Source: Myxococcaceae bacterium (GTDB taxonomy: Bacteria; Myxococcota; Myxococcia; Myxococcales; Myxococcaceae). Taken from it: a stretch of DNA of 64,000 nt. The notes beneath the pieces were generated by a model, which saw only the letters and a program-made list of their open reading frames with translations, ran no database searches and had not been told where the DNA came from. The first letter of the stretch is position 1; each line of letters starts with the position of its first letter. Location: contig JAIBBQ010000009.1 of assembly GCA_019694595.1 (NCBI GenBank), positions 1 through 64,000 on the forward strand, given 5' to 3'. Positions 3,601 through 24,292 of this stretch are shown one piece after another. The position numbers and the translations under genes were made by a program.

Positions 3601-4592
3601 AGGTTCAGACTCATCTGCGCGGCATCCTCCCGTGACAAGGCCACGACCTCGTGGACCTCGCACCTCCGCTGCATTCGTGCGGAGCTCAGGAAACGCAGTA
3701 CTGGGTCCTTGGGAGACCTGACGGCAACGACGACCTTCCACTGTGAGGTCCGTCCTGTTCCAAGCTGTTCGGCGAGAACCTGCAGGAGGCCTTCGTCCTC
3801 CGGTTCGTCCACCAACAGAAGGGTCGGTCGCTCTGGGATGATGCCGGTGAACCAGCTGGCCGACCCGGTCATGGTCGCAGTGTTCGCCCAGAGCACCTGC
3901 CAGTGGCCCTGCGCTGAGAGTTCTTCACCGGCCTCCAGCAACAGTCGTGTCTTGCCGACACCACCGGGCCCATGCATCACCAGAAACAGCCTATCGGTCT
4001 TAGCGAACGTTCCGACCCTCGCGACATCCTCCTGTCTCCCGACAAACTCACTTAGGTCGCGCTGCAGAAACGGTTCATCAGCGACCAACCGACTTCGGAT
4101 CTCCGGGAGCGAGAGGAGTGCTCGGGTCGTGTTCTCGAAGAAAGCCCGCGAAACCTCCGGGTACGCGTCCAGCAAGGCGTCGAGGTTCGCTCGCTCCCAG
4201 TAACTGGCCTCCAGCCCGAGAGCCGCGAAGAGCGGTACGACTTCCGACTTCCACTTCTGATCCGACGTTGGGTTGAACTCGGCGTTGGTGACCAAACGCC
4301 AGTGCGTCACACCCCTCCACTGTTCGAATCGACTGTGGCCCGGCTCTCGGCACCTCTTGATGTTGGCCACCTCCTCCTTCGCGTCCGCAATCGCCTTCGA
4401 AGCGGACCCATCTTCATGATGCTTCGCCTGGTAGACGAGAAGTCCGTCTCCGGAACGCGCATCCTGTCCCCCGTCCCGGCCCCGCCGTCCAAACAGCACA
4501 GCTCTGGGGTCCTTGAAGAAGACCAAGGTCGTGGCGAGTGCTTCGAACGTGGCTCCACTCCGAATGAGCCCCCAATTGCGATCGGCACTCAT
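615..4592 (-). CDS. Mrr-like nuclease fused to STAND NTPase (Avs-like defence protein)
   Basis: A 1,325-residue protein. The N-terminus resembles an Mrr/PD-(D/E)XK restriction nuclease: E17, a GRDGGQD block ending at D44, and YQAKHH with Q55-x-K57. A STAND-type P-loop NTPase follows, with Walker A GPGGVGKT at 208-215 and Walker B LLLVDE at 258-263. The remaining roughly 900 residues are Leu/Ala-rich helical repeats, the usual sensor region of such proteins. The architecture (nuclease, STAND, helical repeats) is that of Avs-type antiviral ATPases, which bind phage proteins and then degrade DNA. The ATG at 4592 overlaps the brxHI stop (ATGA), so it is probably translated with BREX. The trigger is unknown, and assignment to a numbered Avs family is not possible by eye. 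Confidence 0.85.
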   Translation of the reverse strand: MSADRNWGLIRSGATFEALATTLVFFKDPRAVLFGRRGRDGGQDARSGDGLLVYQAKHHEDGSASKAIADAKEEVANIKRCREPGHSRFEQWRGVTHWRLVTNAEFNPTSDQKWKSEVVPLFAALGLEASYWERANLDALLDAYPEVSRAFFENTTRALLSLPEIRSRLVADEPFLQRDLSEFVGRQEDVARVGTFAKTDRLFLVMHGPGGVGKTRLLLEAGEELSAQGHWQVLWANTATMTGSASWFTGIIPERPTLLLVDEPEDEGLLQVLAEQLGTGRTSQWKVVVAVRSPKDPVLRFLSSARMQRRCEVHEVVALSREDAAQMSLNLLRAGPLRTGRPEELERLSTELAARFSTHPVWLTLAVHLLETRGDLNLVPTNSEQLASEYLEEIVRQQADFPPEQLTSVLRWVALLAPFNRDDQAAVRLVGEGTGLEREVVLSSITRLIERRALTERGANRRLVELKPDVMRDHVLLTWLAVASRGGGQLAPSIAALELAQPIASAVREGGLNAVGSKILVALARTEMLLRLSGRTVDLLSSFFEPLRAALASTNAVGRVAIAEVLHEVAYVRPLDVVDMSRRLRTSAVEAQEVPGFLGNLRRVGHDDVVLALGWSVYHAAAGADSAASIAAVLQELCLLTESEAEIGQRRNRGLPNDGKRAAEMVDRTIQGGPEFWGEFDEAAEALALQYLDAAVAVPLGLGAAAALRALLHSVLGVERERISSEGRTFTIQRWVIHPSDPAWARRERVHASARGAIEASGVPTRTKQLLWAAVVESHRSLTQARRQLSDDIGLAYRDAVLQELEWAESVLGANPVPLEELACARDLWDWHRRFDTDQVIRTVAERLEQFYSRNSLAAEFEPLTSWDSIDEKDARTTEKATSLACEPGPDRIVEFVRRAQRFLGTDIGRLQGVGWQLGALCPSSSAAREFVPIGLGSGDETQRYFASVMARSWVAQLRRAAPDESLAVTQRLVDACGSDEQRARLLEEFFAPPRGEVISPAEHQYLRQQLPLFLRAQSGPGFLHAVAWTFDLEWNSLRSALQEVVTTLRGDQLRRGLDALVESVFWGARRDEIEPPADLGAWLLDQAILISDLDEIGDGVEWRLGEIFKRVPYPDVPWLLGALKMRRTEEMRERSGEPFRAMSTHSMLSRYVRKLDSSASNHPQTLAAVRDLIALVHDQSSIGYYAPQLLAELDPEGWAVPSEVARAIGDATSVDDLLRLGRVAGAYAIGGPPWRVIARAALSSPLHATKLSTLCSALGGSRSRSWHGTPGEVPAVFVAAAELAKRQLDEERDPVLLPFWSWQKAVADAELRQQEEEAREERGE

Positions 4593-7345
4593 GCAGCTCC
4601 CTCTGGGAGTTCAGGTTGGCGTTCCTGCTCAAGCGAGGCGAGACGTTGGTGCAGCACGAGCAAGATCTCAGCGTCCAGGGCGGCGTAACGCATCTGGTCG
4701 GCGTCGAGAGGTCGTCTGCTCCAGTCGGACGTCTGCTCCGACTTGTCGAGAGACAGCCCGAGCTCGCGCTCGCTGACCATCGCGAGGCTGTGTCCCCCGA
4801 GGACGTCTTTCCCGCGAAGTCGCCGCGACGCCTCCATCGTGTCGAACACGCCCGCGATGTCGATCCCAGCCTGAGCCAGAACGCGTCGCTCGAACCTCGC
4901 GTTGTGAATCACCTTGGTCGGCACAGGCTTCCCGAAGACAGCCTGGAGCGGAAGCAGGTCACCCACTGCAAACGGGTCGATGATGAAGGTCCGCTCCGGG
5001 GTCGCGACCTGCACGAGACACAGCGTTCCGAAGTCGCGGGCCGTCTCAACGTCGAGTCCCAGCACCTGGGCTTCAGCCAGCTTCTCGCAGACCAAGCGCA
5101 ACGCAGCCGGGGTCGCTACCCACTCGATCGTGTTCTTCGGTGTCGCGGCCCCCTTCGGCGAGGGGGCGAGCGGAATCGAGACGACCCCACCAAGCTCGTC
5201 TGAGAGCCGAGCACCAGCGGGCGCCTGGCTGAGGCGAATTCCACCGACCATGGCGGTCCCGAGGAACGCCAACGTCCCCGCGTGGTCGAGCAACTTCTCA
5301 GCAAGGAGGCGGTCCTCCGCGTCTTCGGGAAGGCAGGGCTGGAACTTACTCACCATCCCTCGAGCCATGTTCCGAGCGGCGTCTGCCGCGACCTGGCTCC
5401 AGTCGAGCCCCGCCAGTCCGGCGATGGCCTCCTTCGCAACGAGCCCCGTGATGTCCTTGCACTTCACCGACAGGTTGCCGGCGACCCAACGCTTCCCAGT
5501 CTTCGACTCCAGGCCCGCAGCGAGCAAGCGGTTCACCGCCCCGCCGGCGAAGGTGTGCCACTGCACGCCGTCGCTCTGCTCCTCGAGGGGCGACGTGCCC
5601 TCCTCCTCGAGCAACGGTGCGTACGAATCACGAAGCGCCTCGAGCTCGAGAAGCGCAGGCCTCGAGAGCCAGTTCACTTCCTCGCCCGAGTGCAGCAGCA
5701 CGTCCTGCATGGCCTTGCAGAGCTTCGTCGACAGCGTCCCCGCCAGACCGAGCCAATTGGGCACTCGTCCGCTGGTGGTCGGCTTCACGTAGGCGACGCC
5801 CTTCGACCAGTCGACCTGCCCTACCTCCCAGGGCCGTCCGCCGAGACGGAAGCAAAGCCGCCCCTGCCGGTGATCGTGCATGGACACGAAAACCGACTGC
5901 ACGTACCCAACGTCTTCCTTCCCGTAGACGACGCGCAACGCCGGCGGCGCGGTGAAGACCGCATAGAGCTCGAAGAAGTTCTTCTTCCCGTAGAGCTTCT
6001 CGCCGCGGCGGCCCAGCGAGAGGAGCCCATCCGCCTCGTAGAGGATCTCTCGCTCGAGCATCGTCTGGACGAGCTGCTGCAGACGGTCCTCGCCGATACC
6101 CGAGAACGGGTACGCAGCCTCGATCCAGGGCAGCAGCCGGTGCCGGGAGAGCCCTCCCTCCTGAAGCACCAGCGCCATCACCTGATGCGCGAGCACATGC
6201 ATCGCATGCGCGGCAGGCGTCACGTCCTCGACCCACCCCGCCTGTGCGAGGCGGAGCAACGCCACCGCCTGCAGCAGCGATTCGGAGGTCAGACAGAAGA
6301 AGGTGCAGTTCGCCCGGGTGTTTGCGCGTCGCCCTGTGCGTCCCATCCGCTGAAGGAAAGACGCAACCGTCGTGGGGGCGTCGAGTTGAATGACCTGGTC
6401 GAGGTCACCAACGTCGATGCCGAGCTCCATCGTCGACGTCGCGATGATGGCGGTGTTCTGTCCCTGTGCGAACCGTTCCTCAGCGAGCGCTCGGTCAGCG
6501 CGGCTCACAGAGCTGTGGTGAATGAAGACCTCGACACCGCTGCCCTCGAGCGCCTGCGCGACCTTCTCGGCACGGGACCGGCTCTCGACGAACACCAGGC
6601 TCTTCTTGCCGCGAGCGAGCTGCCCGATGCCCCGGGCCGCGTCATCGACGTCCGAGCACAGCTCGATCTTGAGATCGCGCTGCGCGGGAGGACGTGGCGG
6701 GTCAACCAAGCGGAACGGCCGAGTGCTGGAGCCCTGAAGCCACTCGCCGATGACCTTCGGATTGCCAACGGTCGCCGAGAGACCGATGCGCTGAACATCG
6801 CGACCACAGAACTGCTGAAGCCGCTCAAGCAAGGCGGACAGGTGAGCGCCTCGGTCGTCCGCCGCGAACGCGTGAACCTCGTCGATGATGACCATCGAGA
6901 GCCCGCCGAAGAGCGCCTTCGCGTCTGTCCGCTCGCTGATCATCATGACTTCCAACGACTCGGGCGTGGTCATCAGGATGTGTGCAGGCGACTTACGGAA
7001 GCTGCTCTTCTTCGAGTCGCTCACGTCTCCGTGCCACTTGAAGACCTCGAGGCCCACCATGCGGGCGTACGAGCGAAGGCGCTCCTCCTGGTTGTTCAGC
7101 AGCGCGCGGATTGGGCAGATGTAGAGAACGGAGACCGGCTTGAGTTCCTCAGTCAGGATCCGCGAGAGGACCGGGAAGATCGCAGCCTCGGTCTTGCCGC
7201 CAGCCGTGGGCGCGAGGACGACCGCGTTGGCGCCATCAAGAACCGCGTCGATGGTCAACTCCTGCACGGGCCTCAGCGACCTCCATCCGAGGTCGTGGAC
7301 GATGGCGTGCTGAAGGTGCGGGTGAAGTCGATCGATTCCCGCCAT
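4589..7345 (-). CDS. brxHI: BREX type 2 Lhr-like helicase BrxHI with C-terminal DEDDy exonuclease domain
   Basis: A 918-residue superfamily 2 helicase. Walker A APTAGGKT is at 45-52, the DEVH box lies in MVIIDEVH, and motif VI reads QRMGRTGRR; the long region after the helicase core is Lhr-like. Residues about 733-905 form a DnaQ/RNase D-type 3'-5' exonuclease domain: D755-x-E757 (exo I), IHNARFE at 803-809 (exo II, Glu809 where Asp is usual) and YAALD with Y877 and D881 (exo III). BrxHI is the last gene of canonical BREX-2 clusters. The ATG lies 3 bp after the brxD stop. Whether the exonuclease is standard in this family cannot be settled here; the domain itself is clear. Confidence 0.92.
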   Translation of the reverse strand: MAGIDRLHPHLQHAIVHDLGWRSLRPVQELTIDAVLDGANAVVLAPTAGGKTEAAIFPVLSRILTEELKPVSVLYICPIRALLNNQEERLRSYARMVGLEVFKWHGDVSDSKKSSFRKSPAHILMTTPESLEVMMISERTDAKALFGGLSMVIIDEVHAFAADDRGAHLSALLERLQQFCGRDVQRIGLSATVGNPKVIGEWLQGSSTRPFRLVDPPRPPAQRDLKIELCSDVDDAARGIGQLARGKKSLVFVESRSRAEKVAQALEGSGVEVFIHHSSVSRADRALAEERFAQGQNTAIIATSTMELGIDVGDLDQVIQLDAPTTVASFLQRMGRTGRRANTRANCTFFCLTSESLLQAVALLRLAQAGWVEDVTPAAHAMHVLAHQVMALVLQEGGLSRHRLLPWIEAAYPFSGIGEDRLQQLVQTMLEREILYEADGLLSLGRRGEKLYGKKNFFELYAVFTAPPALRVVYGKEDVGYVQSVFVSMHDHRQGRLCFRLGGRPWEVGQVDWSKGVAYVKPTTSGRVPNWLGLAGTLSTKLCKAMQDVLLHSGEEVNWLSRPALLELEALRDSYAPLLEEEGTSPLEEQSDGVQWHTFAGGAVNRLLAAGLESKTGKRWVAGNLSVKCKDITGLVAKEAIAGLAGLDWSQVAADAARNMARGMVSKFQPCLPEDAEDRLLAEKLLDHAGTLAFLGTAMVGGIRLSQAPAGARLSDELGGVVSIPLAPSPKGAATPKNTIEWVATPAALRLVCEKLAEAQVLGLDVETARDFGTLCLVQVATPERTFIIDPFAVGDLLPLQAVFGKPVPTKVIHNARFERRVLAQAGIDIAGVFDTMEASRRLRGKDVLGGHSLAMVSERELGLSLDKSEQTSDWSRRPLDADQMRYAALDAEILLVLHQRLASLEQERQPELPEGAA

Positions 7346-7348
7346 CGG

Positions 7349-8683
7349 CTAGCCGTCCAAGCGCTTCGTTGTGGGCTTCGGAGACTCCTCCGCTTCGACG
7401 TCTGGCGCTCGCCCACTGCGGACAGCAACTTCCTCGTCGGTCAGCTTCGACTCATCCAGCTCGAGCTTGTAGTGCGTCAACGGGTCGTAGTCAGCGTGGA
7501 GGTCTACCCGGTCCATCACGTCGATCAGTTCGCGTAGGAACAGGCGCGGAGCAAGTGAGACCTTGCCTCCGAACCCAGTGGTCACCTGGTTGACCAGCGC
7601 TGTCAGGAACTGATCGTTGACCCTCGAAGCCACCCGCTCGGCGTTCTTCGCTGGGTAGAGATCGCGGATCCGACGCCCAACGGTGAGGAGGCGGTCCTCG
7701 TTGAAAGCGTGCAACCGCACCTGCGTGGCCCGGAGGTTGTCGAAGCGCGCGTCCTCCGTGAAGTTCACCTGCACGCGCTGGTAGAGCGGAGCGAGCGCCT
7801 TGAGCCCCTTGTATCCCTCGTAGAAGTCGCGGGTTCCCGTCACCACCAGGTAGAGCCCGGGCAGTTCGTCCTTCGCCAGCATGTCCATCAGCTGCCGTAG
7901 GGCATTCAGCGATTTCTCGCGCGTCTGAGCGTTCATGCGCTGAATCGTCTCAACCTCATCGAGCACGACGACGAGGCCCTGGTACCCAGACTGCCTCAGG
8001 AGTTGCAGGAGTCCCGCGAGGAACGTGAGCGAGGCCTGCCCGTCGATCTTGCCCTTGGTCCCGGCCTCCTTAAGCACCGAGCGATCGGTGTGCGGCTGTC
8101 CAGCAAGCCAGGCGAGAAGCCCCTGCGCAGTCGCGAAGTCGCTGTCGTGAGTCGCTCGGTGGTACGCGCGGAGCACTTGCGCGAAGGCTGGGTTGCGCCT
8201 CGACAGGTCTGCCAGCTTGTCCTCGAGGCGTTGCTCGGTCGCATCGGCAAAACCTGGGTCGTCTTCCTTGATCCCGCGGAGCCGCGTGACCTCATCGCCG
8301 ATTTGGTACAGCCAGCCCTCAATGATGGCTTGGAAGGCATTGGGCCCGTCGGCCGCAGTTTCCAACCTTTCAATCAGGCGCCGGTAGATCGTCTCAAGGT
8401 GATGCAGCGGCGTGTCGTTGATCGAGATCTGAACTTCCGAAGTGGCGAAACGACGTTGGCGCGCCTTTGCACAGAGGTATCTGGCAGCGAACGTCTTGCC
8501 GGTACCGTACTCGCCGCGAATCCACTTCGCCTGGCCCTTCCCCGTCGCAACGAAGTCGAGATCCTCGTTCACGGCCTCGACCAGCGGATCGAGCCCAGTT
8601 GCGAAGTGCTCCAGGCCCCGCGCCGGGACGGTGCCACTCCGCAAGGCGTTCACGATGGCAGTTGAGTCAGCAACGGAGGCCAT
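7349..8683 (-). CDS. brxD: BREX ATP-binding protein BrxD
   Basis: A 444-residue P-loop ATPase. Walker A GEYGTGKT is at 57-64 and Walker B is GLVVVLDEVE; this is the pattern of the BrxC/BrxD (DUF2791) ATPases. It lies between the winged-helix gene and brxHI, the position expected in BREX type 2. The start ATG shares one base with the preceding stop (TGATG). BrxD is required in BREX-2 and is thought to act with PglY, but its exact role is unknown. Family and context agree, so the call is firm. Confidence 0.92.
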   Translation of the reverse strand: MASVADSTAIVNALRSGTVPARGLEHFATGLDPLVEAVNEDLDFVATGKGQAKWIRGEYGTGKTFAARYLCAKARQRRFATSEVQISINDTPLHHLETIYRRLIERLETAADGPNAFQAIIEGWLYQIGDEVTRLRGIKEDDPGFADATEQRLEDKLADLSRRNPAFAQVLRAYHRATHDSDFATAQGLLAWLAGQPHTDRSVLKEAGTKGKIDGQASLTFLAGLLQLLRQSGYQGLVVVLDEVETIQRMNAQTREKSLNALRQLMDMLAKDELPGLYLVVTGTRDFYEGYKGLKALAPLYQRVQVNFTEDARFDNLRATQVRLHAFNEDRLLTVGRRIRDLYPAKNAERVASRVNDQFLTALVNQVTTGFGGKVSLAPRLFLRELIDVMDRVDLHADYDPLTHYKLELDESKLTDEEVAVRSGRAPDVEAEESPKPTTKRLDG

Positions 8684-9621
8684 CAGTGCGACTCCTTCTT
8701 CATGACGAAGCGAAACTGGGTCTCGCCGTCGAGAAGTACTTCCGCCACGAACAACTCCAACCCGAGAGCGTGGAGCTTCCGGCGCAGTGTTCGCATCATT
8801 CCACCGATACGCCCCACGGGCCTGCCGAGTCGTTCAGCAAGATCAGTCGAGCGGCAGGATCCGACTCTCGCCAACACCCGGAGGGCGAACAGCTCCTCGG
8901 TATGAAGGGCATCAATGAGACCGGATGGAATGCCAAGCGCCGGGTCGTCGCCCGCGTCGAGCAACTCGTCCATGGCGCGAACCTTTCGCGTCAGAACATC
9001 TTCAGGATCGGGGCGTCTCTGTTCGCGATCGACGCGTTGAGAGGCTCCGCGCTGAGGCGTGCCCAAATAGAGCCGACCATCAGGTGTCTTGACGACCCCG
9101 CTGTCTTTCTCCTGGACCAGTCTCGAGAAATACACCTTCAGTGTGTTCCACTTCAGAGTCGGGAGTCGCTCTCTGAGCTGCTGCAGCAGTTCGGAATACG
9201 GCGTCGCGGTCTTCTCGTCTCGCCCCATCGCCTCCAAGAGAGCCGCCCGAACCTGAAGCTGAATCGGAGCGGGTCCGGTGACCGCGTCGTAAGGGCTGTA
9301 GTTCTCCTGCGGAAAGGGCTTCCGCCGTGGGTCTCTCTCTGGCTGGGTGAGTTCGTCTGCCAACGACTCTTGCTGATGCGCGCGTGAGACTTCTGTTGTG
9401 TTCAGCAGGTAGTAGCCGTGGCTTCCCGGCACTTTCGCGATGACGGGGCTCAATTCACGAACCATTGCAGAGAGGGTCGCCGGAATTGTGTCCTCCGCGT
9501 GGCCCTCGCTCAGCATCGGTTTGAGCTGCGCTGCCAGCGTGACGCCGAGCACCGCCTTGGCAGGGTCCGGCGCCAAGAGCCGAGGGAGCAACCGGGCCAA
9601 GTGGTCTCTCAACTTCGCCAT
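8683..9621 (-). CDS. Three-module winged-helix protein inserted between pglZ and brxD
   Basis: A 312-residue protein not in the canonical six-gene BREX-2 set. The ATG at 9621 shares one base with the pglZ stop; a longer frame exists upstream but would lie inside pglZ, so it was not used. Three helix-turn-helix-like modules can be seen, about residues 1-80, 120-185 and 239-312, each ending in a hydrophobic strand (GYYLL, GRLYL, FRFVM). The last module aligns without gaps to PglZ 784-856 with 31 of about 70 identities by hand count, including the shared LRR, GL-LF and DGET blocks. It may bind DNA or bridge PglZ to the complex. The function is inferred; the homology is seen. Confidence 0.8.
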   Translation of the reverse strand: MAKLRDHLARLLPRLLAPDPAKAVLGVTLAAQLKPMLSEGHAEDTIPATLSAMVRELSPVIAKVPGSHGYYLLNTTEVSRAHQQESLADELTQPERDPRRKPFPQENYSPYDAVTGPAPIQLQVRAALLEAMGRDEKTATPYSELLQQLRERLPTLKWNTLKVYFSRLVQEKDSGVVKTPDGRLYLGTPQRGASQRVDREQRRPDPEDVLTRKVRAMDELLDAGDDPALGIPSGLIDALHTEELFALRVLARVGSCRSTDLAERLGRPVGRIGGMMRTLRRKLHALGLELFVAEVLLDGETQFRFVMKKESH

Positions 9622-12191
9622 CAGCGAGGATCCTTGTCCCGGTACCGGTACATCGTCTCGCCGTCCGGAAGCGTCTCGCTCCCGAAAAGCACCAGCCCTC
9701 GCTCGTGCAGCGAGCGTCGCAGCGAGTGCATGAGGCCGTTCAGGCGGCCCGGGTTCTTCTTCAGGAGCTTCGCCAGCTCGCTCGCACGCGCCGAGCCATT
9801 CTCGCGCAGGAGCACCAGGACCGCCTTCTCGTCGTTCGACAGCTTCGCGAGCGCCTCGGCGGGCACAGGCAGCCCGGCCGCCTTGTCGGCCGGGTCGAAC
9901 AGGGACATCTGCGGCCGCGGCGGAGTCACGTTCGGCGTCGGCGTGACGAGAGGAGGGAGTACCGGCTTGGGCGACGCGAGCACGGGCACCGCCAGCGAGC
10001 CACCGCCGAACCACCACGCAGGCTCATCCGGCTGGAGCCCGTCGCGCACCAGCCACCCCATGGGCACGACCATCTCCTCCAGCGAACAGCCGCCATGGAA
10101 GCCGACCTGGGGCCCACCGAGGTACGCCCCCATCTTCCACGCGAACGCCCGACGCGCCGGAGGCCCGCCGAGAGACTTCACGTCGATCTCCAAGAAGCCC
10201 TCAGGCGCGCGCTCGCCGGGCCCCAGTGTGAGGTACCGCGGCGTCTGCCCCGCGCCAGCACGAAGCGTCTTGTCGACCCACGGGCTGTGCCCGTGGTCTG
10301 CGGTCACGAGCACCTTGCGTCCCGAGCGCAGCGCGCGGTGAAGCGCCGGCTTGAATCCAGCGATGTCCTCCGGCGAGGGGCGCCACGCAGTGCCCGTGTT
10401 CGCCGAGCCAATCTGATCGTCGACCGCGTTGAACACCGTCGCCACGACCTCGAGGTCTTCGTCTGCAAGTGCCGAGAGCAGCGCCTGCCCACCATCGGCG
10501 AGATCTCTCTTGAGGAACAGCCGCCGAGTTCGGCTCACGAGCGCATCGTTCTGCTTGAAGCGAGCCGGGTCCGTCTTCGCCTCGTCCTGGTCGCGGAAGA
10601 CGGTCTCCGCAACGAGCGGGTCCTGCGGCAACTGCCCCAGAAAGATCGACCCGCGCGCATGGCTCGTCACCGTAGGCAACGGAGACAGCCCTTGGAGGCC
10701 GATCACCCGGCCCTCCCGATCGGCCGAGAGCCCGACGGGGAACGTCGCGTCTTGTCCGAGCGCCTCCAGGAGCTCGAGGAAGACCGGATAGCTGCACCCA
10801 TCCAGAACGATAACGAACAACTTCTCTTTGGCGCTCGAGCTCCAGGTCGGCGCGACCACCCGCTTCCAGAGGCGATGCAGGGGGATGACGCCTTCCGCGT
10901 GCAGCGCTGCCTCGTAGTCGGCGGCGAGCGTGGTGGCGAAGTGCAGGTTCTGCCGGTCCCGGCGTTCCCGCGCGCGGGCGAGCACCTGCTGCGACTCGGC
11001 ATGGAAGTGAGCCGAGCTCGAGAGAGCACGCCGAAGCTGAGTCATGGCGAGATCGAGGAATGCGCCGTGGCGCTGGTACTCCTTCACCTGCTCGACGATG
11101 TCCTGCTGCAGCGCCAGCGGCTGGTCGAGCGCGCGTGACACGCGGGCGAGCGCTTCGATGACACCCAGGTCGGACTTGTTGAGCTTCGCCGCTCCGTGGC
11201 TGTGCAGCCAGGCGATCTCTGCAGCCCTAATGGGCTTCCCCTCTGCGGCCTGCGCGGCGAGCTGGTGGCAGCGATCCGAGAAGGCGAGCGGCAGCACCCG
11301 GCTGGTCTGCAGCTGACTCGGCGTAAGATTCTCTCGCCCCCTGCGATCGGCCTGTGAGAGCAGCGACGCACCAGCGTCACCAAGCACCGAGAGCGTCTCC
11401 CCTGCGAGCTCCGATAGAACGCGACGGAGGATGCGGCGATCGAGTTCAAGCGGCGCCTCGGCCGCCGCGGCCCACAACAGGCCCCATGCAGGTTTCGGCA
11501 ACTCGACCGAGTCGACGGTGAGCACCGCCCCAACGATCACCAGCTCGCGCAGCCGCTGCTCCGGCGCGGCGAGCGCCCAGGCCAACAACCGGCCCTCATC
11601 ACCATGAAGCCGCGGCAGCGCATCGCGAACCAGCAGGGAGACGTCGTTCGACCAATCGGGCGGCGCCTGCACCCACGCTGCGAGCAGTTGTGCTGGCGTT
11701 CGCGTTCGCACCTGCTCGCCTACGCTGACGTCGACGAGGAGCTCTGTGAGCAGCTGTCGATCGATGACGGTCGGCAACGTGCGTTTGTGGAGCAACTTGC
11801 TGATGCGCTCGAGATGATCAAGTGCGAGCTGCTGCAGGTGCGGCGCGTCGGCACCGATGACGCGCACACCGAGCACGAGCTCAAGCACGTCGTTGATCGC
11901 CAGCGCGTGTACTCGCTGGTCCTTCGCGCGGCGCACGACATCGGGCGCCGCCTGGATCTTTCGTGCGACCTCCTCGGGCAGCACGGCGATCAGCGGCGCG
12001 CCCTTCGCCTTCCACAGCAGGTGTCGCAGCCCCAGCTCCGAGGTGACCCGCTGGACGGCGTACTGCGCGCCGCCGCTATCGAGGCGATCCGGCAGTTGCT
12101 CCAGCCCCTCCCCGTCGAGGACGAGGACGAAGGTCTCGGGCCCGCGCGAGCGGTTCAGCACGTGATTGAGCAGGAGATTAGCGGTGCTCAC
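9621..12191 (-). CDS. pglZ: BREX phosphatase-fold protein PglZ
   Basis: An 856-residue protein with an alkaline-phosphatase superfamily (PglZ) domain: metal-site motifs FVIVLDGCS in the middle and TADHGHSPW toward the C-terminus. PglZ is the signature protein of all BREX systems. The start is GTG at 12191, overlapping the pglY stop (GTGA). The last about 73 residues are a winged-helix domain shared with the next gene. An N-terminal region (residues 1-150) with VLVLDGEG resembles a second, truncated copy of the fold start, but this is uncertain. Confidence 0.93.
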   Translation of the reverse strand: MSTANLLLNHVLNRSRGPETFVLVLDGEGLEQLPDRLDSGGAQYAVQRVTSELGLRHLLWKAKGAPLIAVLPEEVARKIQAAPDVVRRAKDQRVHALAINDVLELVLGVRVIGADAPHLQQLALDHLERISKLLHKRTLPTVIDRQLLTELLVDVSVGEQVRTRTPAQLLAAWVQAPPDWSNDVSLLVRDALPRLHGDEGRLLAWALAAPEQRLRELVIVGAVLTVDSVELPKPAWGLLWAAAAEAPLELDRRILRRVLSELAGETLSVLGDAGASLLSQADRRGRENLTPSQLQTSRVLPLAFSDRCHQLAAQAAEGKPIRAAEIAWLHSHGAAKLNKSDLGVIEALARVSRALDQPLALQQDIVEQVKEYQRHGAFLDLAMTQLRRALSSSAHFHAESQQVLARARERRDRQNLHFATTLAADYEAALHAEGVIPLHRLWKRVVAPTWSSSAKEKLFVIVLDGCSYPVFLELLEALGQDATFPVGLSADREGRVIGLQGLSPLPTVTSHARGSIFLGQLPQDPLVAETVFRDQDEAKTDPARFKQNDALVSRTRRLFLKRDLADGGQALLSALADEDLEVVATVFNAVDDQIGSANTGTAWRPSPEDIAGFKPALHRALRSGRKVLVTADHGHSPWVDKTLRAGAGQTPRYLTLGPGERAPEGFLEIDVKSLGGPPARRAFAWKMGAYLGGPQVGFHGGCSLEEMVVPMGWLVRDGLQPDEPAWWFGGGSLAVPVLASPKPVLPPLVTPTPNVTPPRPQMSLFDPADKAAGLPVPAEALAKLSNDEKAVLVLLRENGSARASELAKLLKKNPGRLNGLMHSLRRSLHERGLVLFGSETLPDGETMYRYRDKDPR

Positions 12192-15100
12192 GCCTCGCCC
12201 TCGCCCACGACGATCGTGATGCGCTTCTTCTCCACCTTCGCCAGCTCCGCGCGCAGCGTGTTGATGAACGCGTCGACCGATGCGGCGTCACTGGGAACCA
12301 CATCAGCACGAAGCATCAACCGCGCTGGAGCGGGCAAGGGCGGGGGCACCTTCGTCGCGGTTCCTGGTCCCTGCGGTGGCGGAGGCACCACTTCGACCAA
12401 TCGCCTCGTGAGCCTCCGAGCCTTTTCATTCCACTCGCGGACCCACTCACGCGTCAGCGGCTGCTCGACCTGCCGAGCAGCGAGCCGCGCATTAAGCGCC
12501 CCCAGGTGCAACGAGAACTCGCCAGCGAGCGTCGGGTGTTGCCGCCCGCCCTCGATGAGGGTCCGGCTGTGTCGGTCGAGGTCCGTCACCGCTTCCAGCA
12601 TTGAGCTCGCCTGCTGCACGACGATGCGGAATGGATCAGCCGGCTCATCTGCCCACGCAGTGAGCAGGTCCGAGAGCACCTTGAAGCTGTCCGTCGTATG
12701 CTGTGCGAGCGCGGCGAGCCGCTGGCTGGCCACTCCGAGTTCCTTCACCCGTTCGCCCTGCTCTGCGCCCAGCTCTACAAGCCGTTGGTGGAGCGACTGA
12801 AGCACGCCGCGCCGCGCCTTCCCGGCCTCAGCCAGGTCACGCGCCGAGGCGTCCTGCGACTGAAGCGACCGGTGCACCGACGGCCGGGCGAGCCCGAACA
12901 GCACGTGACCGAGATCGCGCACGCGGCCCCACTCAGCGCTGCCCAGCAGCTTCCCGCGCTGCAGGCGCAGCCGCTGGGACGCCGACATGTTGAAGCCCAC
13001 CTCCACCGTCTCGCCCGTGGCCTCGTCGATGGCTCGGTGGTCACGCCGGCAGAGGAAGTTCAGAAACAGCTCGATGAGGAGCGGCTGAAAGCCGTACTGC
13101 TCACGCAGGTGCTCAGCGACGGCGGTCCACGAGACCGAGTCGGCGTCGGAGCGCTGGAGCACATCCTTGATGTACCGGCTGTCGAGTCGCAGCGAGGCCT
13201 TGGTCTGGCCGACGTTGACCAGTTCGAGCGGCTTGGCGAGCGCATTGAGCACGCGCCCAGTCTCCTCGTCATAAGCCACCGACACGCCCTGCTCCCCAGC
13301 GCTGAGCATCCATTCCAGCAAGCACTGCAGGTCGGCCTTTTTCGGCTCGGCAGTGAAGAGCGGATGCTGCGGGTAGCGGCGGTCCATCAGCGCCGCAGTG
13401 ATGTGCTCGAGGTTCTCGAACAGCGTCTCGCGGGGTCGCGCAGAGTCGACGCCGTTAACGAGCGGGAAGAACTCGCCCTCCTTCACGTACACGCGAAGGA
13501 GCAGCGCATCGAGGTCATCCGCGAGCATCTTCTCGCGCGCGACGGCGTTCTCGAGGAGCTTCGTGCGGTCCTGCTTCCCAAACGTCTCGAGCAGGTCCTC
13601 CTGCCCCGCCTCAGAACGAAGGTACCGGACGGCGGCGAGCTCGGTAATGATCGCCAGCTCGCCGTCGGTGAAGTGGCGCGGCAGCCAGCAGACGGTGTGC
13701 AGGTTGCCCTTCTTCTTCCGGGCGGTTACCGCACGCATGCGGTCTTCGTCGACGGTGCGCCCGGGCTCGTCCCACGGGTAGTCGATGAGTACGGCAAAGG
13801 CGTCCTCTGGCGGCTCAAAGTCCTGTTGCGACATCTCGCGCACATTGTTGAGCTTGATGCGGCCGCGACGACGCGTCTTGCGCCAGAGCAGGGTCCAGTC
13901 CCCTTCGTTCGGCCCGCCGTCCTCGAAGCCCTTGGCGCCGTCGAGATCGAGCGCCTTTCGTAGCGCGCCCCAGAACGTCCGGAAGCGAGTCGAAAGATTG
14001 TCGACCTTCGACTGCGCGCGCTTGAGTACCTCGCCGAGGCTGACGCGCCCGAGCACGTAGGTGACCTGCGCCGTCTTGTCGGTGCCGACGATCTGCAGGT
14101 CTGGCAGCCGTGTCGACAACGCACGAAGGTCGGTCTGCGCAATGCGGACCTGGGTTCGGAAGCTCTCTCCTTCGACATCGGCGGTATTGAGCTGCACGAG
14201 CCGCTCGATGGTGAGACCCGATCCGGCAAGCCGCGTAGACACTGCCCCGAGGAGGACCGTCTTCACGTGATGCTGGAGCGCGGTCTTGCGCTCCGGCGTA
14301 AAGTCGGCACCCAGCTCCACGGCGAGCTGGTCGATTGTCGGCTCGAGGCGCAGGTAGTACGCGTGGTGAATCTCCTGCATCAGCTCGATCTTCTTGCTCG
14401 CCTCGACGCCAGCACGCGTGAAGATGGCTGAGAACGCAGAGCCGACCGGAATGAAAGCCCCGAGCGGAAGGTCGGGGTTGTGCACGACGAGCAGCTCGTA
14501 GAGGAGCCGCAGCGCCGAGCGCTCGCGCTGCATGAGCGAGGTCACGTCGACCAGCATCTCAATGAGCGCGGGGTGGAACGGGTAGACGTCCTTCAGGTAC
14601 GCGCTGTCCCCGTTCGCGAGCAACGCCTTCCACACCTTGTCGTGTTTCTCGGCGAGCGCGGCGACGGCGGCGTCGATGGCCTTCGGGTCCCTCGGCCGGA
14701 GCACGCGGCCACGCACGATGTGGCGCAGCTCGACGTCTTCGAGGTTCGTGACCTCGAAGCGCTGGGCCTGGTGATTGATGTGCTCGTAGATCTGCTTGTC
14801 GTCGGCGAGGTCGGGGAAGAACTCGCTCAAGCTGCGCTGGCGCGCGACGAAGACGAAGATCGGCGCGGCTCGCTGGCCCTTGTCGTGGTCGACGATCATC
14901 GTGAGGTTGTTGATCTCCTGGATGAACTCGCGCCCCGACTTCTCTGCGAGCCAGAGAACGAACTCGTCGACCATGAGCACGATGCCACCGAAGCCTTGCG
15001 CCTTCGCATGGGCGGCCATGCGCTTGAGGCCTTCACTCCACTTGGGGTCGATGCCGGCGTCGGCGAGGTTGCGCCCCTTGTGCTGCAGCCAGGCCTTCGC

Positions 15101-15733
15101 GAACGACTCGCGCGCGGTGATGGAGCCGGCGGCGATGGCCTCGAACTCCTCCTTGCTGCCGACGATCCCGGCGCTCTCGAGCTTCTTCCAGACGACGTCG
15201 CCGTACTCCTGCGCCTCGCGGCGGGCCTCGGCGAAGACGGCGTCGAGGTTGAGAAACTCGAAGGTGGCCTTGTCGCGGCGTGCGAGTGCCGCATTGAAGG
15301 CGTCGTAGACGGCGCGGTCGAAGCCGGTGGTGCGGCCGCGCGTCGAGAGCATGTGTAGCCGCACGACGAGGAGCCCGGCCTTCTCGAGCCACGCCTGGTG
15401 CTCGCCCTTCTTGAGCAGTGGACCAAACTTCGCCCACGCCTCGGGCACGTTCTCGAGGACGGCGGCGAGCATGGACATGAAGTGCGACTTGCCGCTGCCG
15501 AAGCTGCCGTGGATGAAGCGGCCGTACTCCTCGCCGCGGGAATAGACTTGCTTCATCTTGTCGAGGATGAGCGGCAGCTCCTTCTCCACGGAGGGGGTGA
15601 CGACGTAGTCGCTGACAAGGTTCTTAAACTCCTCCGACGCGCGGTCGGCCTCGCGCAGGCGCACCACGAAGCCCATCGAGGTGAGCTCGTTGGCGGGCTT
15701 GAGGTCGAAGACATCCTTGATGGTCTTGCTCAT
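12188..15733 (-). CDS. pglY: BREX type 2 ATPase PglY
   Basis: An 1,181-residue P-loop protein. Walker A is GSFGSGKS at 76-83 and the likely Walker B is GIVLMVDEFVLW near residue 240. PglY is the large BREX-2 ATPase, the counterpart of BrxC in type 1. The ATG at 15733 overlaps the pglX stop (ATGA); the frame is open further upstream to 15955, but that part lies inside pglX and begins with low-complexity Arg/Ala residues, so the overlap start is preferred. The C-terminal third is helical and charged. It is expected to assemble with PglZ and PglX. Confidence 0.93.
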   Translation of the reverse strand: MSKTIKDVFDLKPANELTSMGFVVRLREADRASEEFKNLVSDYVVTPSVEKELPLILDKMKQVYSRGEEYGRFIHGSFGSGKSHFMSMLAAVLENVPEAWAKFGPLLKKGEHQAWLEKAGLLVVRLHMLSTRGRTTGFDRAVYDAFNAALARRDKATFEFLNLDAVFAEARREAQEYGDVVWKKLESAGIVGSKEEFEAIAAGSITARESFAKAWLQHKGRNLADAGIDPKWSEGLKRMAAHAKAQGFGGIVLMVDEFVLWLAEKSGREFIQEINNLTMIVDHDKGQRAAPIFVFVARQRSLSEFFPDLADDKQIYEHINHQAQRFEVTNLEDVELRHIVRGRVLRPRDPKAIDAAVAALAEKHDKVWKALLANGDSAYLKDVYPFHPALIEMLVDVTSLMQRERSALRLLYELLVVHNPDLPLGAFIPVGSAFSAIFTRAGVEASKKIELMQEIHHAYYLRLEPTIDQLAVELGADFTPERKTALQHHVKTVLLGAVSTRLAGSGLTIERLVQLNTADVEGESFRTQVRIAQTDLRALSTRLPDLQIVGTDKTAQVTYVLGRVSLGEVLKRAQSKVDNLSTRFRTFWGALRKALDLDGAKGFEDGGPNEGDWTLLWRKTRRRGRIKLNNVREMSQQDFEPPEDAFAVLIDYPWDEPGRTVDEDRMRAVTARKKKGNLHTVCWLPRHFTDGELAIITELAAVRYLRSEAGQEDLLETFGKQDRTKLLENAVAREKMLADDLDALLLRVYVKEGEFFPLVNGVDSARPRETLFENLEHITAALMDRRYPQHPLFTAEPKKADLQCLLEWMLSAGEQGVSVAYDEETGRVLNALAKPLELVNVGQTKASLRLDSRYIKDVLQRSDADSVSWTAVAEHLREQYGFQPLLIELFLNFLCRRDHRAIDEATGETVEVGFNMSASQRLRLQRGKLLGSAEWGRVRDLGHVLFGLARPSVHRSLQSQDASARDLAEAGKARRGVLQSLHQRLVELGAEQGERVKELGVASQRLAALAQHTTDSFKVLSDLLTAWADEPADPFRIVVQQASSMLEAVTDLDRHSRTLIEGGRQHPTLAGEFSLHLGALNARLAARQVEQPLTREWVREWNEKARRLTRRLVEVVPPPPQGPGTATKVPPPLPAPARLMLRADVVPSDAASVDAFINTLRAELAKVEKKRITIVVGEGEA

Positions 15734-18700
15734 GACTCCTCGGCCTCTTCGGGGTCTGCGGTCTTCGTCTTCCTCTTGGCGGGGGGCTTCTTCGCGGCCT
15801 TGGCGGCGCGGCTCTTGGGCGGCGGGAATCGCTGGCCCCAATCGGCAACAAGCTCGGGGCTGGGGCCGTTCGGGCCAACGAGCGCTTGGAGCTCGGCCTT
15901 GAAGCGGGCCGCGACTGCGGGGTCCTCGCGCGCGACGTCGGGGAGCAGGCGCCACGCGCTGTCCAGCAGGCCGATCCGGTCGGCGAGTGCGATGTCCTGG
16001 TCCTCGAGCGTCTCGTCGATGGTGAGGATGGCCCTAACACGCTGCGTGGGCGTCCAGCCGGCCCATCCATAGAGGGTCTCGACGCCAGTGCGGCCTGGAA
16101 CTTCGGTGAGAGCGATGAAGCGCTCCTTTGGCACGTCGAGCTTTCCGCGAAGCTGCCAATACTCCGGCCTCAGATAGTCCGTGTTCGCGTAGTTCGGAGG
16201 CACCTCGGGCACTATCTTCTCTCCGGCGTCAGCTCGCGTTTGTTCAGTCCAGGTACGCTCCCAGGCTTTTCGTTTGGCAAATCCGGCCAGCGTGTAGATG
16301 TGCAGAGGGTGCTGCGGAACGGATTCCGCCTGCAGCACCTGTGCGACAAGCTGGGCGAGATTGAAGTCGCGACGGTCCGCCAGAACCTCACACACCGCCA
16401 GCGCGCTATTGTCGTGCTGGAGAGCGGCGACCAAATGTTCAAGCGAGAAGTATCGATTTCTTTCGCGCGCAACATCCTCCACGCGCTGGGCAAGCCACGC
16501 GCTCAGAGCCGTCTTTGTCTTATCAAGGAAGGTCCTATCGTATCGGCCGAATACCCCCTGCGTCCCTCGCCACAACCGCTTGTTGATCGGGCTCTCAATC
16601 AGCCCGAGAAAGCGGTCGGATTCGATGAGCCTCCGACGGCGAGCGTACTCATTGGCGACCCGTGGCGAGATATCATCCGGCGGCTTGCCGTCGGCCCATG
16701 CGAACGGCCTTGAGTCTGGATGAACTTCGCACTCATCCAACAGCGCCGTACTCTCAAGAGGAACCAAGCCGGTTAGGCGATAGACCTCCCAGTCGAGTTC
16801 TTCTTGCCAAAACACCATGCGAAGGAAAGCGCTCAGCTCCCTTTGCGCAGCGTCTCTCAGCGCGGCGGCCAGCGCATTTGAAGATGCGAGAGCGTCCCTG
16901 CGAGCGAGCACGCTAGTCGGAAGTTGATTCGTGCGCTCAGTGGCAAGGGCGTCGATGGTTGCCGCAATCCTACTGACGGAGCTTTCGGCAAGTCCGCGCG
17001 GCACCGGAAACGCGTTCAGCCCCGTAGCGGCGAACTCGTACCGATTGTTCTCGGGCATTAGTCCAGCCTTCGAAATGTCAGATGTTGCAGAACCCTTCGG
17101 ATAAAAGACCTGCTTCATCCAAAAACATGCGGTCGAAGAATTCAACACACCCACAAGCGCGAGGTGCATCTTCTCATTCACACCCCTTGACAGCTTGATG
17201 ATAGGAGCACTCTGCTTGAACACCCTTCCGCCACGATCGAGCACGAAGTGATTGTGAGTGGCGACAAAGGCAAACGTGATCGACAACTGAGTGCGCAACT
17301 TCGATGCCGTGAATCGCCCGTATTCGTACCATCTCAGGCCGTCCTCGACCTTTGTTCTCCCCCCGAACATCTTGTTGTTGGAGAGGCGGGTCTTATACGG
17401 AAGGAGCCATGCCTCGAGTTTGGTGCCGGCAACTGACTCCAGAACATTCAAGGCGTTATCGTAGGGAAAGACTGCGACATCCGTTGGCGCGGTGGTCCAA
17501 TCCCGAATGAGATCACCCTCGACCATGGCGCGGCGTTGTTCCACCGGAATGCCGTGGCGCACAAGCACTGCTTCGGGTGCAATAAATGCGTCGTCTTCAA
17601 GCGTAAAGCACGTGATGCCGATGCTCTCTGACTGCTTCCCGAGCGTCGACTCCGCCGCCATCTCGATTTTCTGTTTGAGTTCAGCAGCGCCACCGCCGCC
17701 GAGACTCCATGGATGAGCATTCAGGGTACTTCGAGAAACATCGGCAACGCTAATGTAATCATTGTCGAAACCAAGAGAAGCCCAGCGCGTCTCGATGCTT
17801 CTCCAAACCTCGCCATGCGCCGGATCACTTGGAGTGCCACTCTCGCCGCGCTTGCCGAGCACAGCGCGCACGGAATCGCCGACCGGCGTTCGGCATCGAC
17901 CAAAGAGCAGAACAGTGGGAGTCGAGTGGAACGGAATGTATGCCTGCGCGGCGTCGACGACGAGCGTCAGATCCTGACCCGCGAGCACCTTCTCGATGAG
18001 CGCCTTCCCAAAATCGCGCTTAGTAAAGTTGTTGCTGGTAATGATGCCCACGAAGCCATCCTTCTCGGCGAGTTGAAAACAGCGCTCTGTAAACGGCGCC
18101 CCAAGTGAGTACTTGCCGGTCGCGGAGACGTAGCGGCGGTCCTTGCCGATGAGTTCGCGGTGGTACGCCTTTCGCATCTCGTCGCGTTCGAGAATGTACG
18201 GCGGGTTCGCGACCACAGCGTGGAAGCGAATTTCGTAGACCTTTCTGAGCGCAAAGCGAACGTCTGACCTGGTCAGCTCCGCTCGCGGCCGCTCCACCGC
18301 CGGTTCGAACAACCCGAACTGTAGCGGCGGCTTCACCTCATCCCGCTCCACCTGCTCGAGCCCGTCCGCCCAGTAGACGTGTGGATGGAAGGCCGATGCC
18401 CCTTCTAGCGTCGTCACGCCCGCCAGTTCCGCGGCCGTCATTATGAGCCGCGCTCGCGCGAGCCCGCACGCGTAGTCGTTCAGGTCCACGCCAACGACAC
18501 GCGCCAGAGCATGCAGCACGACATCCATCTTCGACCAATCCGTATGCTTCTCCGTCGTCGCAGCGACCAGCCGTTTGAGCCCGTCGATTAGGAAGTGCCC
18601 AGACCCGCACGACGGATCCAACATCCTCACTGTGTCGGCGCCGAACTCCTCGACCGCCGGCGTCAGTGTCCGGTCGAGAATGAACGCGCGTACAAAATCG

Positions 18701-19278
18701 GGCGTCTGGCAGAGCGCGAACCGGTCCTTCACCACCGGATCGAGCTCCTGGTACAGGTCGCCCATCAGCTCGCCCTCGAAGCGCTCCTCCGCGAAGCTCC
18801 AGTAGGCCCCCGTGTCCGCGTCCTTGTGCCGCCAGAAGGCGATGAGCTCGCGCGACAGCTCGTCCGCCGGCAACGCCAGCTCCGCCGGCTGAGGGCTGAA
18901 CAGCTCCGGCAAGCCGCCGTTGGGGCTCGCGAGGTCCCGGTAGATCCACTTGAGGAACGCCGTCTCGCCGAGGTGCGGCGCCAGCTTCTCGAACAGGTGC
19001 TGCGCCTCGAGGTCGAGCAGCCGCCCCGGGCTCACCAGCCCCCGGTCCTCCAAGACGCGCACGTAGACCGACTTGAGCACCCAGAGCACCGCCGCGCGGC
19101 GCGACAGCACGTCCGTCCAGACGTCGAAGTCCTCGCCCACCTTCTCGTCCTGGTGGAGCCGCAGCGCCGCTTCCCGCGCAACGCCCGGCGTCCGCATCTT
19201 CACGCGCAGGTCCGCGGCGATCTTCGCCACCAACTTGCTCAGGGCCGACGTCAGCTTCAACCGATCAGCAGGCTTCAT
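15730..19278 (-). CDS. pglX: BREX N6-adenine DNA methyltransferase PglX
   Basis: An 1,182-residue gamma-class adenine methyltransferase. Motif I is DPSCGSGHF at 221-229 and the catalytic NPPY is at 358-361. PglX marks host DNA so that BREX acts only on foreign DNA. The ATG is 10 bp after the pglW stop, with a GAGAGAG purine stretch just before it. The gene is mosaic: by hand count the line 18961-19020 is 70% GC, while 17101-17160, in the middle of the gene, is 45%. The low-GC part probably holds the target-recognition domain and may have been exchanged. The methylation site cannot be predicted. Confidence 0.94.
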   Translation of the reverse strand: MKPADRLKLTSALSKLVAKIAADLRVKMRTPGVAREAALRLHQDEKVGEDFDVWTDVLSRRAAVLWVLKSVYVRVLEDRGLVSPGRLLDLEAQHLFEKLAPHLGETAFLKWIYRDLASPNGGLPELFSPQPAELALPADELSRELIAFWRHKDADTGAYWSFAEERFEGELMGDLYQELDPVVKDRFALCQTPDFVRAFILDRTLTPAVEEFGADTVRMLDPSCGSGHFLIDGLKRLVAATTEKHTDWSKMDVVLHALARVVGVDLNDYACGLARARLIMTAAELAGVTTLEGASAFHPHVYWADGLEQVERDEVKPPLQFGLFEPAVERPRAELTRSDVRFALRKVYEIRFHAVVANPPYILERDEMRKAYHRELIGKDRRYVSATGKYSLGAPFTERCFQLAEKDGFVGIITSNNFTKRDFGKALIEKVLAGQDLTLVVDAAQAYIPFHSTPTVLLFGRCRTPVGDSVRAVLGKRGESGTPSDPAHGEVWRSIETRWASLGFDNDYISVADVSRSTLNAHPWSLGGGGAAELKQKIEMAAESTLGKQSESIGITCFTLEDDAFIAPEAVLVRHGIPVEQRRAMVEGDLIRDWTTAPTDVAVFPYDNALNVLESVAGTKLEAWLLPYKTRLSNNKMFGGRTKVEDGLRWYEYGRFTASKLRTQLSITFAFVATHNHFVLDRGGRVFKQSAPIIKLSRGVNEKMHLALVGVLNSSTACFWMKQVFYPKGSATSDISKAGLMPENNRYEFAATGLNAFPVPRGLAESSVSRIAATIDALATERTNQLPTSVLARRDALASSNALAAALRDAAQRELSAFLRMVFWQEELDWEVYRLTGLVPLESTALLDECEVHPDSRPFAWADGKPPDDISPRVANEYARRRRLIESDRFLGLIESPINKRLWRGTQGVFGRYDRTFLDKTKTALSAWLAQRVEDVARERNRYFSLEHLVAALQHDNSALAVCEVLADRRDFNLAQLVAQVLQAESVPQHPLHIYTLAGFAKRKAWERTWTEQTRADAGEKIVPEVPPNYANTDYLRPEYWQLRGKLDVPKERFIALTEVPGRTGVETLYGWAGWTPTQRVRAILTIDETLEDQDIALADRIGLLDSAWRLLPDVAREDPAVAARFKAELQALVGPNGPSPELVADWGQRFPPPKSRAAKAAKKPPAKRKTKTADPEEAEES

Positions 19279-24113: not shown

Positions 24114-24292
24114 CGCCACTCCGTTCGAAGGGTGAACGTAAGTGGAGACCACCGACTCGCCCAACGTCGTCCGCCCCCCACTCCGCCCCCCCCTTGTGAG
24201 GCTATCTACTTGATTTTCCGGGTGTCGCGCGCGCTTTTCGTCCGGGATGACTCGGCTTGATCGGTTGGTGGACGCCCACCTATGACCTAGGT
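24114..24292 (-). promoter_or_regulatory. Probable internal promoter region of the BREX core, with C-tracts and short direct repeat
   Basis: This 179-bp gap separates the AddAB-like module from the pglW unit. It contains homopolymer runs of six C (24174-24179) and eight C (24186-24193) on the plus strand, 73-80 bp before the start codon at 24113, followed by an AT-richer patch (24199-24223). The 7-mer TAGGTTC occurs at 24288-24294 and again at 24298-24304, exactly 10 bp apart, across the stop codon of the upstream gene. A promoter here is inferred from the gap; the tracts and repeat are seen. Confidence 0.4.

What the first reader, a model, noticed from the sequence alone, without database searches (positions are those of the whole stretch)
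8683..12191. A winged-helix protein between pglZ and brxD shares its C-terminal domain with PglZ
Residues 239-312 of the extra protein align without gaps to PglZ 784-856 with 31 identities in about 70 positions (hand count). It seems a domain was duplicated and the copy became a separate subunit, perhaps a DNA-binding or bridging component of the BREX complex. It is not among the six canonical BREX-2 genes.
Basis: seen in the sequence. Interest (0 to 1): 0.75.

Follow-up and report, generated by a model that had tools for sequence, protein, structure and literature searches.

The report
PglZ tail domain on separate BREX protein
A myxobacterium's BREX anti-phage operon carries an extra small protein made of three DNA-binding-type (winged-helix) domains, the last of which is a copy of the tail of the system's nuclease-like subunit PglZ; the same arrangement has arisen separately in at least two other BREX lineages, which suggests that this tail is a plug-in connector for accessory proteins.

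Summary
Confirmed, with one change of emphasis. Window 8683-9621 (-) encodes a 312-aa protein between pglZ and brxD of a complete BREX-2 operon; residues 239-311 align ungapped with PglZ 784-856 at 31/73 identities (BLASTP E=1e-14; shuffled controls far below). AlphaFold2 models give the same winged helix, element for element, at a constant offset of 545. The rest of the protein is two further, tandem winged helices. The gene matches no Pfam, NCBIfam or PADLOC family. It is rare: about 108 of roughly 120 resolved pglZ-brxD junctions have pglZ abutting brxD, including the dozen nearest relatives. Yet two other junctions (one canonical BREX-2, one BREX-6) carry a small ORF whose C-terminus copies the PglZ tail of its own subtype behind an unrelated N-terminal half: three independent origins. 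The window's copy is not a recent copy of its own PglZ (AU p=0.017). Best reading: an accessory subunit that docks on the BREX complex through a PglZ-type winged helix and adds DNA contacts; function is inferred, not shown. In passing: BREX-2 PglZs carry a conserved sliding-clamp-binding-like motif (QxxLF) just before this domain; the copy lacks it.

The parts
8683..9621 (-). extra gene, 312 aa: three winged-helix domains, the last shared with PglZ
   Evidence: no Pfam/NCBIfam/PADLOC family
9400..9621 (-). winged helix A of the extra protein (residues 1-74)
   Evidence: AlphaFold2 model; 39% identity over 72 aa, E=5e-16, to the N-terminus of an HrgA-like protein in another myxobacterium, L056
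9058..9273 (-). winged helix B (residues 117-188), tandem relative of A
   Evidence: the same L056 domain matches it at E=1e-6
8686..8907 (-). winged helix C (residues 239-312), PglZ-type
9621..12191 (-). pglZ, BREX-2 phosphatase/nuclease-like subunit, 856 aa
   Evidence: NF033446 241.6 bits, cut-off 200; PF08665
9624..9842 (-). PglZ C-terminal winged helix (residues 784-856)
9897..9911 (-). QMSLF (PglZ 761-765), sliding-clamp-binding-like motif in the disordered linker before the winged helix; absent from the extra protein
7349..8683 (-). brxD
   Evidence: NF033438 539 bits
4589..7345 (-). brxHI helicase with a C-terminal 3'-5' exonuclease-like domain (PF01612)
12188..15733 (-). pglY (start inferred at MSKTIKDVF, overlapping the pglX stop)
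15730..19278 (-). pglX methyltransferase
   Evidence: NF033451 883 bits
19289..23362 (-). pglW kinase
   Evidence: aligns through its C-terminal end with PglW of relatives that lack the extra gene

Best explanation
The extra gene encodes an accessory subunit of this BREX-2 system. Its third winged helix is a PglZ-type tail domain that docks where the PglZ tail docks (on a BREX partner, on DNA near PglZ, or side by side with the PglZ tail as MarR-type winged helices pair), and its two tandem N-terminal winged helices add further DNA (or protein) contacts, so that the subunit helps the complex hold or recognise target DNA during restriction. Shown here: the gene, its tight operon position, the shared domain, the three-winged-helix architecture (predicted), and three independent origins of such proteins, each matched to its own PglZ subtype. 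Inferred: docking, DNA binding, and a role in restriction. The published Streptomyces pglZ(1-834) allele, which lacks the last 130 residues, is phage-sensitive yet still restrains PglX (PMC4365076), so the tail region serves restriction, and an extra copy of it most plausibly acts in that step.
For: Shared domain, E=1e-14, same predicted topology (PglZ tails were rows of the alignment used for the extra protein, so the two models are not fully independent). The copy keeps 17 of 20 positions conserved among PglZ tails of the clade, in the range of genuine PglZ rows, including the Arg/Gly/Leu/Arg/His pattern of the recognition helix and the wing Glu and Gly; helix 3 carries net charge +5. Same-subtype matching by profile: window copy to its own clade 99.6% probability versus 15% and 0.4% to other types; L045 copy 99.7% to canonical BREX-2; L057 copy 99.9% to BREX-6 (also NCBIfam hits to the tail ends of BREX_PglZ_2 and BREX_PglZ_6). 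All three ORFs are intact, pack tightly in the operon, and end with the junction spacing to brxD that PglZ has in relatives. dN/dS between copies and PglZ tails about 0.24-0.56 where synonymous change was not saturated. Winged-helix/MarR-type matches in the PDB for domain C, Z 8-9. Type-2 PglZ tail described as a three-stranded wHTH in PMC12839542; role of the tail region from PMC4365076.
Against: No interaction, expression or phage data. The extra gene is missing from all near relatives, whose systems have the same core genes, so it is dispensable. Subtype matching is also expected if each copy simply arose in place by duplication of the pglZ 3' end. Only one sequence of the window's version exists in the collections searched, so selection on the N-terminal half cannot be measured. 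Helix 3 of domain A is acidic (net -2), which does not favour DNA contact there.
Confidence: 0.45

Rival explanations
1. Transcriptional regulator: a multi-winged-helix protein encoded in the middle of the operon binds the BREX promoter and tunes expression, as BrxR/WYL regulators do in type 1 systems; the PglZ tail was picked up only as a spare DNA-binding domain.
For: Three winged helices with MarR-type and response-regulator-type structural matches; weak MarR hit, PF01047 E=0.078, below its cut-off.
Against: Position inside the operon, translationally coupled between pglZ and brxD; a regulator would not need the tail of its own subtype's PglZ in three separate lineages, and the other two cases have no obvious regulator-like N-terminal half.
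Confidence: 0.17
2. By-product of gene insertion: foreign DNA entered at the pglZ 3' end by an event that duplicated that end, so PglZ stayed whole and the inserted ORF came to end in a second tail. The tail copy has no function of its own.
For: In all three loci the copy-to-brxD junction has the ancestral pglZ-to-brxD spacing (-1, -4, +3 nt), in L057 with near-identical DNA across the junction; in L045 the bases after the pglZ stop (GTGAGCCA) resemble the brxD start; insertions of unrelated genes at this junction occur in 9 other loci.
Against: The tail copies are old (41-56% identity), keep the conserved positions (17/20 for the window) and show dN/dS below 1, so they appear to have been kept by selection; unrelated insertions at the same place that were examined carry no tail copy.
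Confidence: 0.18
3. Competitor or decoy: the free tail domain occupies the PglZ docking site to hold PglZ in check, or absorbs a phage inhibitor aimed at the PglZ tail.
For: The copy carries the tail domain without the clamp-binding-like motif that precedes it in PglZ, as a competitor lacking one function would; PglZ-PglX control is toxin-antitoxin-like (PMC4365076).
Against: A decoy would not need two further winged helices; no phage inhibitor of the PglZ tail is known to me.
Confidence: 0.12

Closest known systems
Type-2 BREX PglZ C-terminal wHTH (described in PMC12839542)
   Same: Same domain family and predicted topology; 31/73 identities.
   Different: In the extra protein it ends a separate 312-aa protein with two other winged helices and without the linker motif QxxLF.
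BrxA / BrxA-like tripartite HTH modules (BrxA, DUF4007, the triple wHTH in PglW; PMC12839542)
   Same: Three HTH/wHTH units in one BREX-encoded protein.
   Different: No match to any Pfam, NCBIfam or PADLOC model; the third unit is PglZ-like; the window's PglW is full length relative to its relatives, so the extra protein does not replace its module.
HrgA-like / HARE-HTH restriction-associated proteins (L056 homologue)
   Same: Winged helix A shares 39% identity with the N-terminal domain of an HrgA-like protein.
   Different: No HrgA C-terminal half, and no Pfam HARE-HTH match.
Small ORFs between pglZ and brxD in L045 (BREX-2) and L057 (BREX-6), found here
   Same: Same place in the operon; C-terminus copies the PglZ tail of the same subtype.
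   Different: Unrelated N-terminal halves (hydrophobic, probably membrane, in L045; unknown family in L057); different tail subtypes, hence separate origins.

Membership tests
BREX type 2 (Pgl) system | PglW, PglX, PglY/BrxC, PglZ, BrxD and BrxHI encoded together | tested here: met
   PglX NF033451 883 bits, PglZ NF033446 241.6 bits (cut-off 200), BrxD NF033438 539 bits; PglY and PglW below NCBIfam cut-offs but strong in PADLOC
Type-2 PglZ C-terminal wHTH | sequence similarity and same winged-helix topology | tested here: met
BrxA or BrxA-like tripartite DNA-binding component | three HTH/wHTH units in one BREX-encoded protein | tested here: met
   AlphaFold2 model, (prediction)
BrxA or BrxA-like tripartite DNA-binding component | match to a BrxA/DUF4007-type sequence model | tested here: not met
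   no family at E<=1 in Pfam, PADLOC or NCBIfam
BrxA or BrxA-like tripartite DNA-binding component | DNA binding | not testable with these tools
   needs purified protein
MarR family regulator | PF01047 above its gathering score | tested here: not met
   13.3 bits against 24.6; the fold alone resembles it
HARE-HTH / HrgA | HARE-HTH or HrgA-type match of the N-terminal domains | tested here: inconclusive
   no Pfam match; one homologous domain sits in an HrgA-like protein

The most novel reading that the evidence does not exclude
The C-terminal winged helix of PglZ is a portable docking module of BREX: at the pglZ-brxD junction different lineages have independently put this domain on otherwise unrelated small proteins (a winged-helix pair, a membrane-type segment, a domain of unknown family) and so plug new activities into the restriction complex. 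Together with the QxxLF linker motif it would make the PglZ tail the part that carries BREX to its target, possibly to sliding clamps at replication forks.
Probability: 0.35. Interest if true: 0.75.

Novelty: new variant of a known kind. Interest (0 to 1): 0.52.

Why it matters
How BREX stops phage replication is still unknown, and the tail of PglZ is a required but unexplained part of type-2 systems. Natural, repeated reuse of that tail on separate proteins marks it as a likely interaction module and gives small baits with which to find its partner. The conserved clamp-binding-like motif beside it gives a direct, testable hypothesis for how PglZ could reach replicating phage DNA.

Tried and rejected
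A recent duplication of this very pglZ tail: rejected (AU p=0.017). A general BREX-2 gene: rejected by the junction survey. Replacement of a lost PglW triple-wHTH: PglW aligns to its end with relatives lacking the extra gene. One old family shared by the three cases: rejected, the tail copies match only their own subtype and the N-terminal halves share nothing. Relatives in plasmids, phages (domain A only) or viral contigs: none. Relatives in the PDB by sequence: none. Relatives of the N-terminal winged helices in 193 Myxococcota genomes: one orphan HrgA-like protein, G134/L056, and one marginal hit. BrxD in viral contigs: none. The first automatic tally counted L058, L120 and L150 as carrying a tail copy; reading the frames showed contig-edge fragments of ordinary PglZ tails. 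The 249-aa ORF before brxD in L187 is not a tail copy on inspection. BrxA was not among the listed structural matches, which tests nothing.

Full report
What is there. The minus strand of the window's left end holds a complete BREX-2 (Pgl) operon: PglW 19289-23362, PglX 15730-19278, PglY 12188-15733, PglZ 9621-12191, the extra gene 8683-9621, BrxD 7349-8683 and BrxHI 4589-7345, in a genome (G000, 7.28 Mb, 99% complete) whose relatives are Myxococcota. The long ORF call for the extra gene (8683-10017) runs back into pglZ; the true start is taken as the ATG at 9621, in TGATG with the pglZ stop, and the extra gene ends in the same TGATG with brxD.

The observation. Extra residues 239-311 and PglZ 784-856 align without gaps with exactly 31 identities in 73 positions; the best ungapped window score is 140 against a maximum of 41 in 200 shuffles. 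BLASTP extends this to 36/87, E=1e-14. Nothing else in the extra protein resembles PglZ or another BREX subunit of the window.

Structure. AlphaFold2 on the extra protein (13-row alignment, mean pLDDT 80) gives three winged helices: 1-74, 117-188 and 239-305, joined by poorly ordered linkers. The PglZ model (12 rows, pLDDT 75) has the same last domain with every element shifted by 545 residues. Because PglZ tails were rows of the alignment for the extra protein, the agreement is not independent of the sequence match, but the match by itself is decisive. PDB matches for domain C are MarR-type, response-regulator and ScpB winged helices at Z 8-9; domains A and B resemble cullin winged-helix domains. 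These show fold, not function. Domains A and B are tandem relatives, bridged by the N-terminal domain of an orphan protein in another myxobacterium (L056), which matches A at 39% identity, E=5e-16, and B at E=1e-6; the rest of that protein matches HrgA, a restriction-associated family. No Pfam, PADLOC or NCBIfam model hits the extra protein.

How common it is. I examined the pglZ-brxD junction in BREX loci from the genome collection (80 loci), from 195 genomes of the window's phylum and from samples of 346, 398 and 297 genomes of three other phyla (centred on Actinomycetota, Pseudomonadota and Acidobacteriota loci), and from eight plasmids. About 108 distinct junctions have pglZ abutting brxD (105 from the tally plus three contig-edge fragments); 9 have unrelated insertions; 3 have an ORF whose C-terminus is a PglZ tail: the window, L045 and L057; a few were unresolved. 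The dozen nearest relatives of the window's system, with PglZ 42-68% identical to the window's, lack the gene. The window's version was found in no other of the 195 genomes of the phylum, nor in plasmids or viral contigs.

Three origins. L045 (canonical BREX-2, NF033446 419.6 bits) has a 221-aa ORF whose last 100 residues are 56% identical to its own PglZ tail, behind a hydrophobic N-terminal half. L057 (BREX-6, NF033443 1639 bits; PglX NF033455 2128 bits) has a 250-aa ORF whose last 86 residues are 55% identical to its own PglZ tail and 67% (over 72) to that of a relative, behind an N-terminal half of unknown family. Profile comparison pairs each copy only with its own subtype: 99.6, 99.7 and 99.9% probability, against 0.4-44% for the others. 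In each locus the copy-to-brxD spacing is the ancestral pglZ-to-brxD spacing (-1, -4, +3 nt), and in L057 the DNA across that junction is nearly identical to the pglZ-brxD junction of a relative. So each probably arose by duplication of the pglZ 3' end in place or in a close relative, with new coding sequence in front. For the window, a tree of the tails rejects pairing the copy with its own PglZ (AU p=0.017) and leaves it unresolved near other PglZ tails of the clade. The tail is short, so this says old, fast-evolving or imported, without choosing.

Has it been kept? The window copy retains 17 of 20 positions conserved in PglZ tails, much as genuine PglZ rows do in leave-one-out, and 70 of 81 variable positions hold a residue seen in some PglZ. 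dN/dS between copies and PglZ tails is 0.24-0.56 where measurable; synonymous sites are near saturation, so this is rough. That speaks against an idle relic.

What it probably does. Recent work describes the type-2 PglZ tail as a three-stranded wHTH that replaces the beta-sandwich of type 1, and BrxA-like triple wHTHs inside PglW; it does not report a separate wHTH gene of this kind in the passages I read (PMC12839542). [quoted passage not shown]). In Streptomyces, a pglZ allele without the last 130 residues is phage-sensitive but still restrains PglX (PMC4365076). So the tail region serves restriction. The simplest use of an extra tail domain with two further winged helices is an accessory subunit that docks like the PglZ tail and adds DNA contacts. 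I give this 0.45; the rivals are listed with their tests.

Side finding. What the copy lost relative to PglZ is chiefly a short motif just upstream of the domain: PglZ 761-765, QMSLF, in the disordered linker. Relatives have QLSLF, QGDLF, QPELF; Pseudomonadota have QPDLF, QDQLF, QPGLF. Among 81 non-redundant BREX-2 PglZ linkers, Qxx[LM]F occurs in 34 (0.6 expected from shuffles, maximum 4), and in the rest of these proteins only 4 times in 65,944 residues against 34 in 6,184 linker residues; [LMI]F occurs in 69 of 81 (13.6 expected), LF followed by D, G, A or E in 55 (3.3 expected). The published beta-clamp-binding consensus is QL(S/D)LF, canonically Q-aliphatic-x-[LM]-[FL] (PMC11139829). Position 2 is often Pro, Gly or Asp here, so only 11 of 81 meet the canonical form (2.8 expected), and most Actinomycetota lack the Gln; another partner for an LF motif is not excluded. 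The two BREX papers checked do not mention a clamp, and a search for papers holding both 'BREX' and 'sliding clamp' gave four papers, none with either term in title or abstract; I did not read them.

Limits. No complex prediction, no expression data, one sequence for the window's version, and L045 comes from a fragmented genome with a broken brxHI frame.

Noticed in passing
window 9897-9911 (-), PglZ residues 761-765; same place in L050, L049, L061, L069, L070, L074, L082, L106 and others: BREX-2 PglZ carries a strongly conserved QxxLF / LF motif, like a beta-sliding-clamp-binding motif, in the disordered linker before its C-terminal winged helix (34 of 81 linkers versus 0.6 expected). Mostly absent from BREX-6 PglZ and absent from the extra protein.
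   Followed up: partly
window 615-4592 (-): A 1325-aa STAND-type NTPase gene overlaps the brxHI stop by 4 nt and so extends the operon; its first 90 residues look by eye like an Mrr-type PD-(D/E)XK nuclease (GRRGRDGGQD...YQAK). No hit to it in the relatives' loci.
   Followed up: partly
window 23364-27418 (-): Two genes directly upstream of pglW on the same strand: a 310-aa protein without family hits, sharing one short stretch (50% over 32 aa) with a 313-aa protein before pglW in L048, and a UvrD-type helicase with a PD-(D/E)XK domain.
   Followed up: partly
window 4589-7345 (-): BrxHI has an extra C-terminal 3'-5' exonuclease-like domain (PF01612); judging by length also in L050-L052 (917-922 aa) but not in L049/L053 (704-709 aa).
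   Followed up: no
L056 9276-10301 (+): Orphan HrgA-like protein in another myxobacterium; its N-terminal winged helix is the only good relative found of the extra protein's first two domains.
   Followed up: partly
L045 11419-11478 and 12140: The 8 nt after the pglZ stop region (GTGAGCCA) match the brxD start, as if the junction itself had been duplicated when the tail-copy ORF arose.
   Followed up: partly
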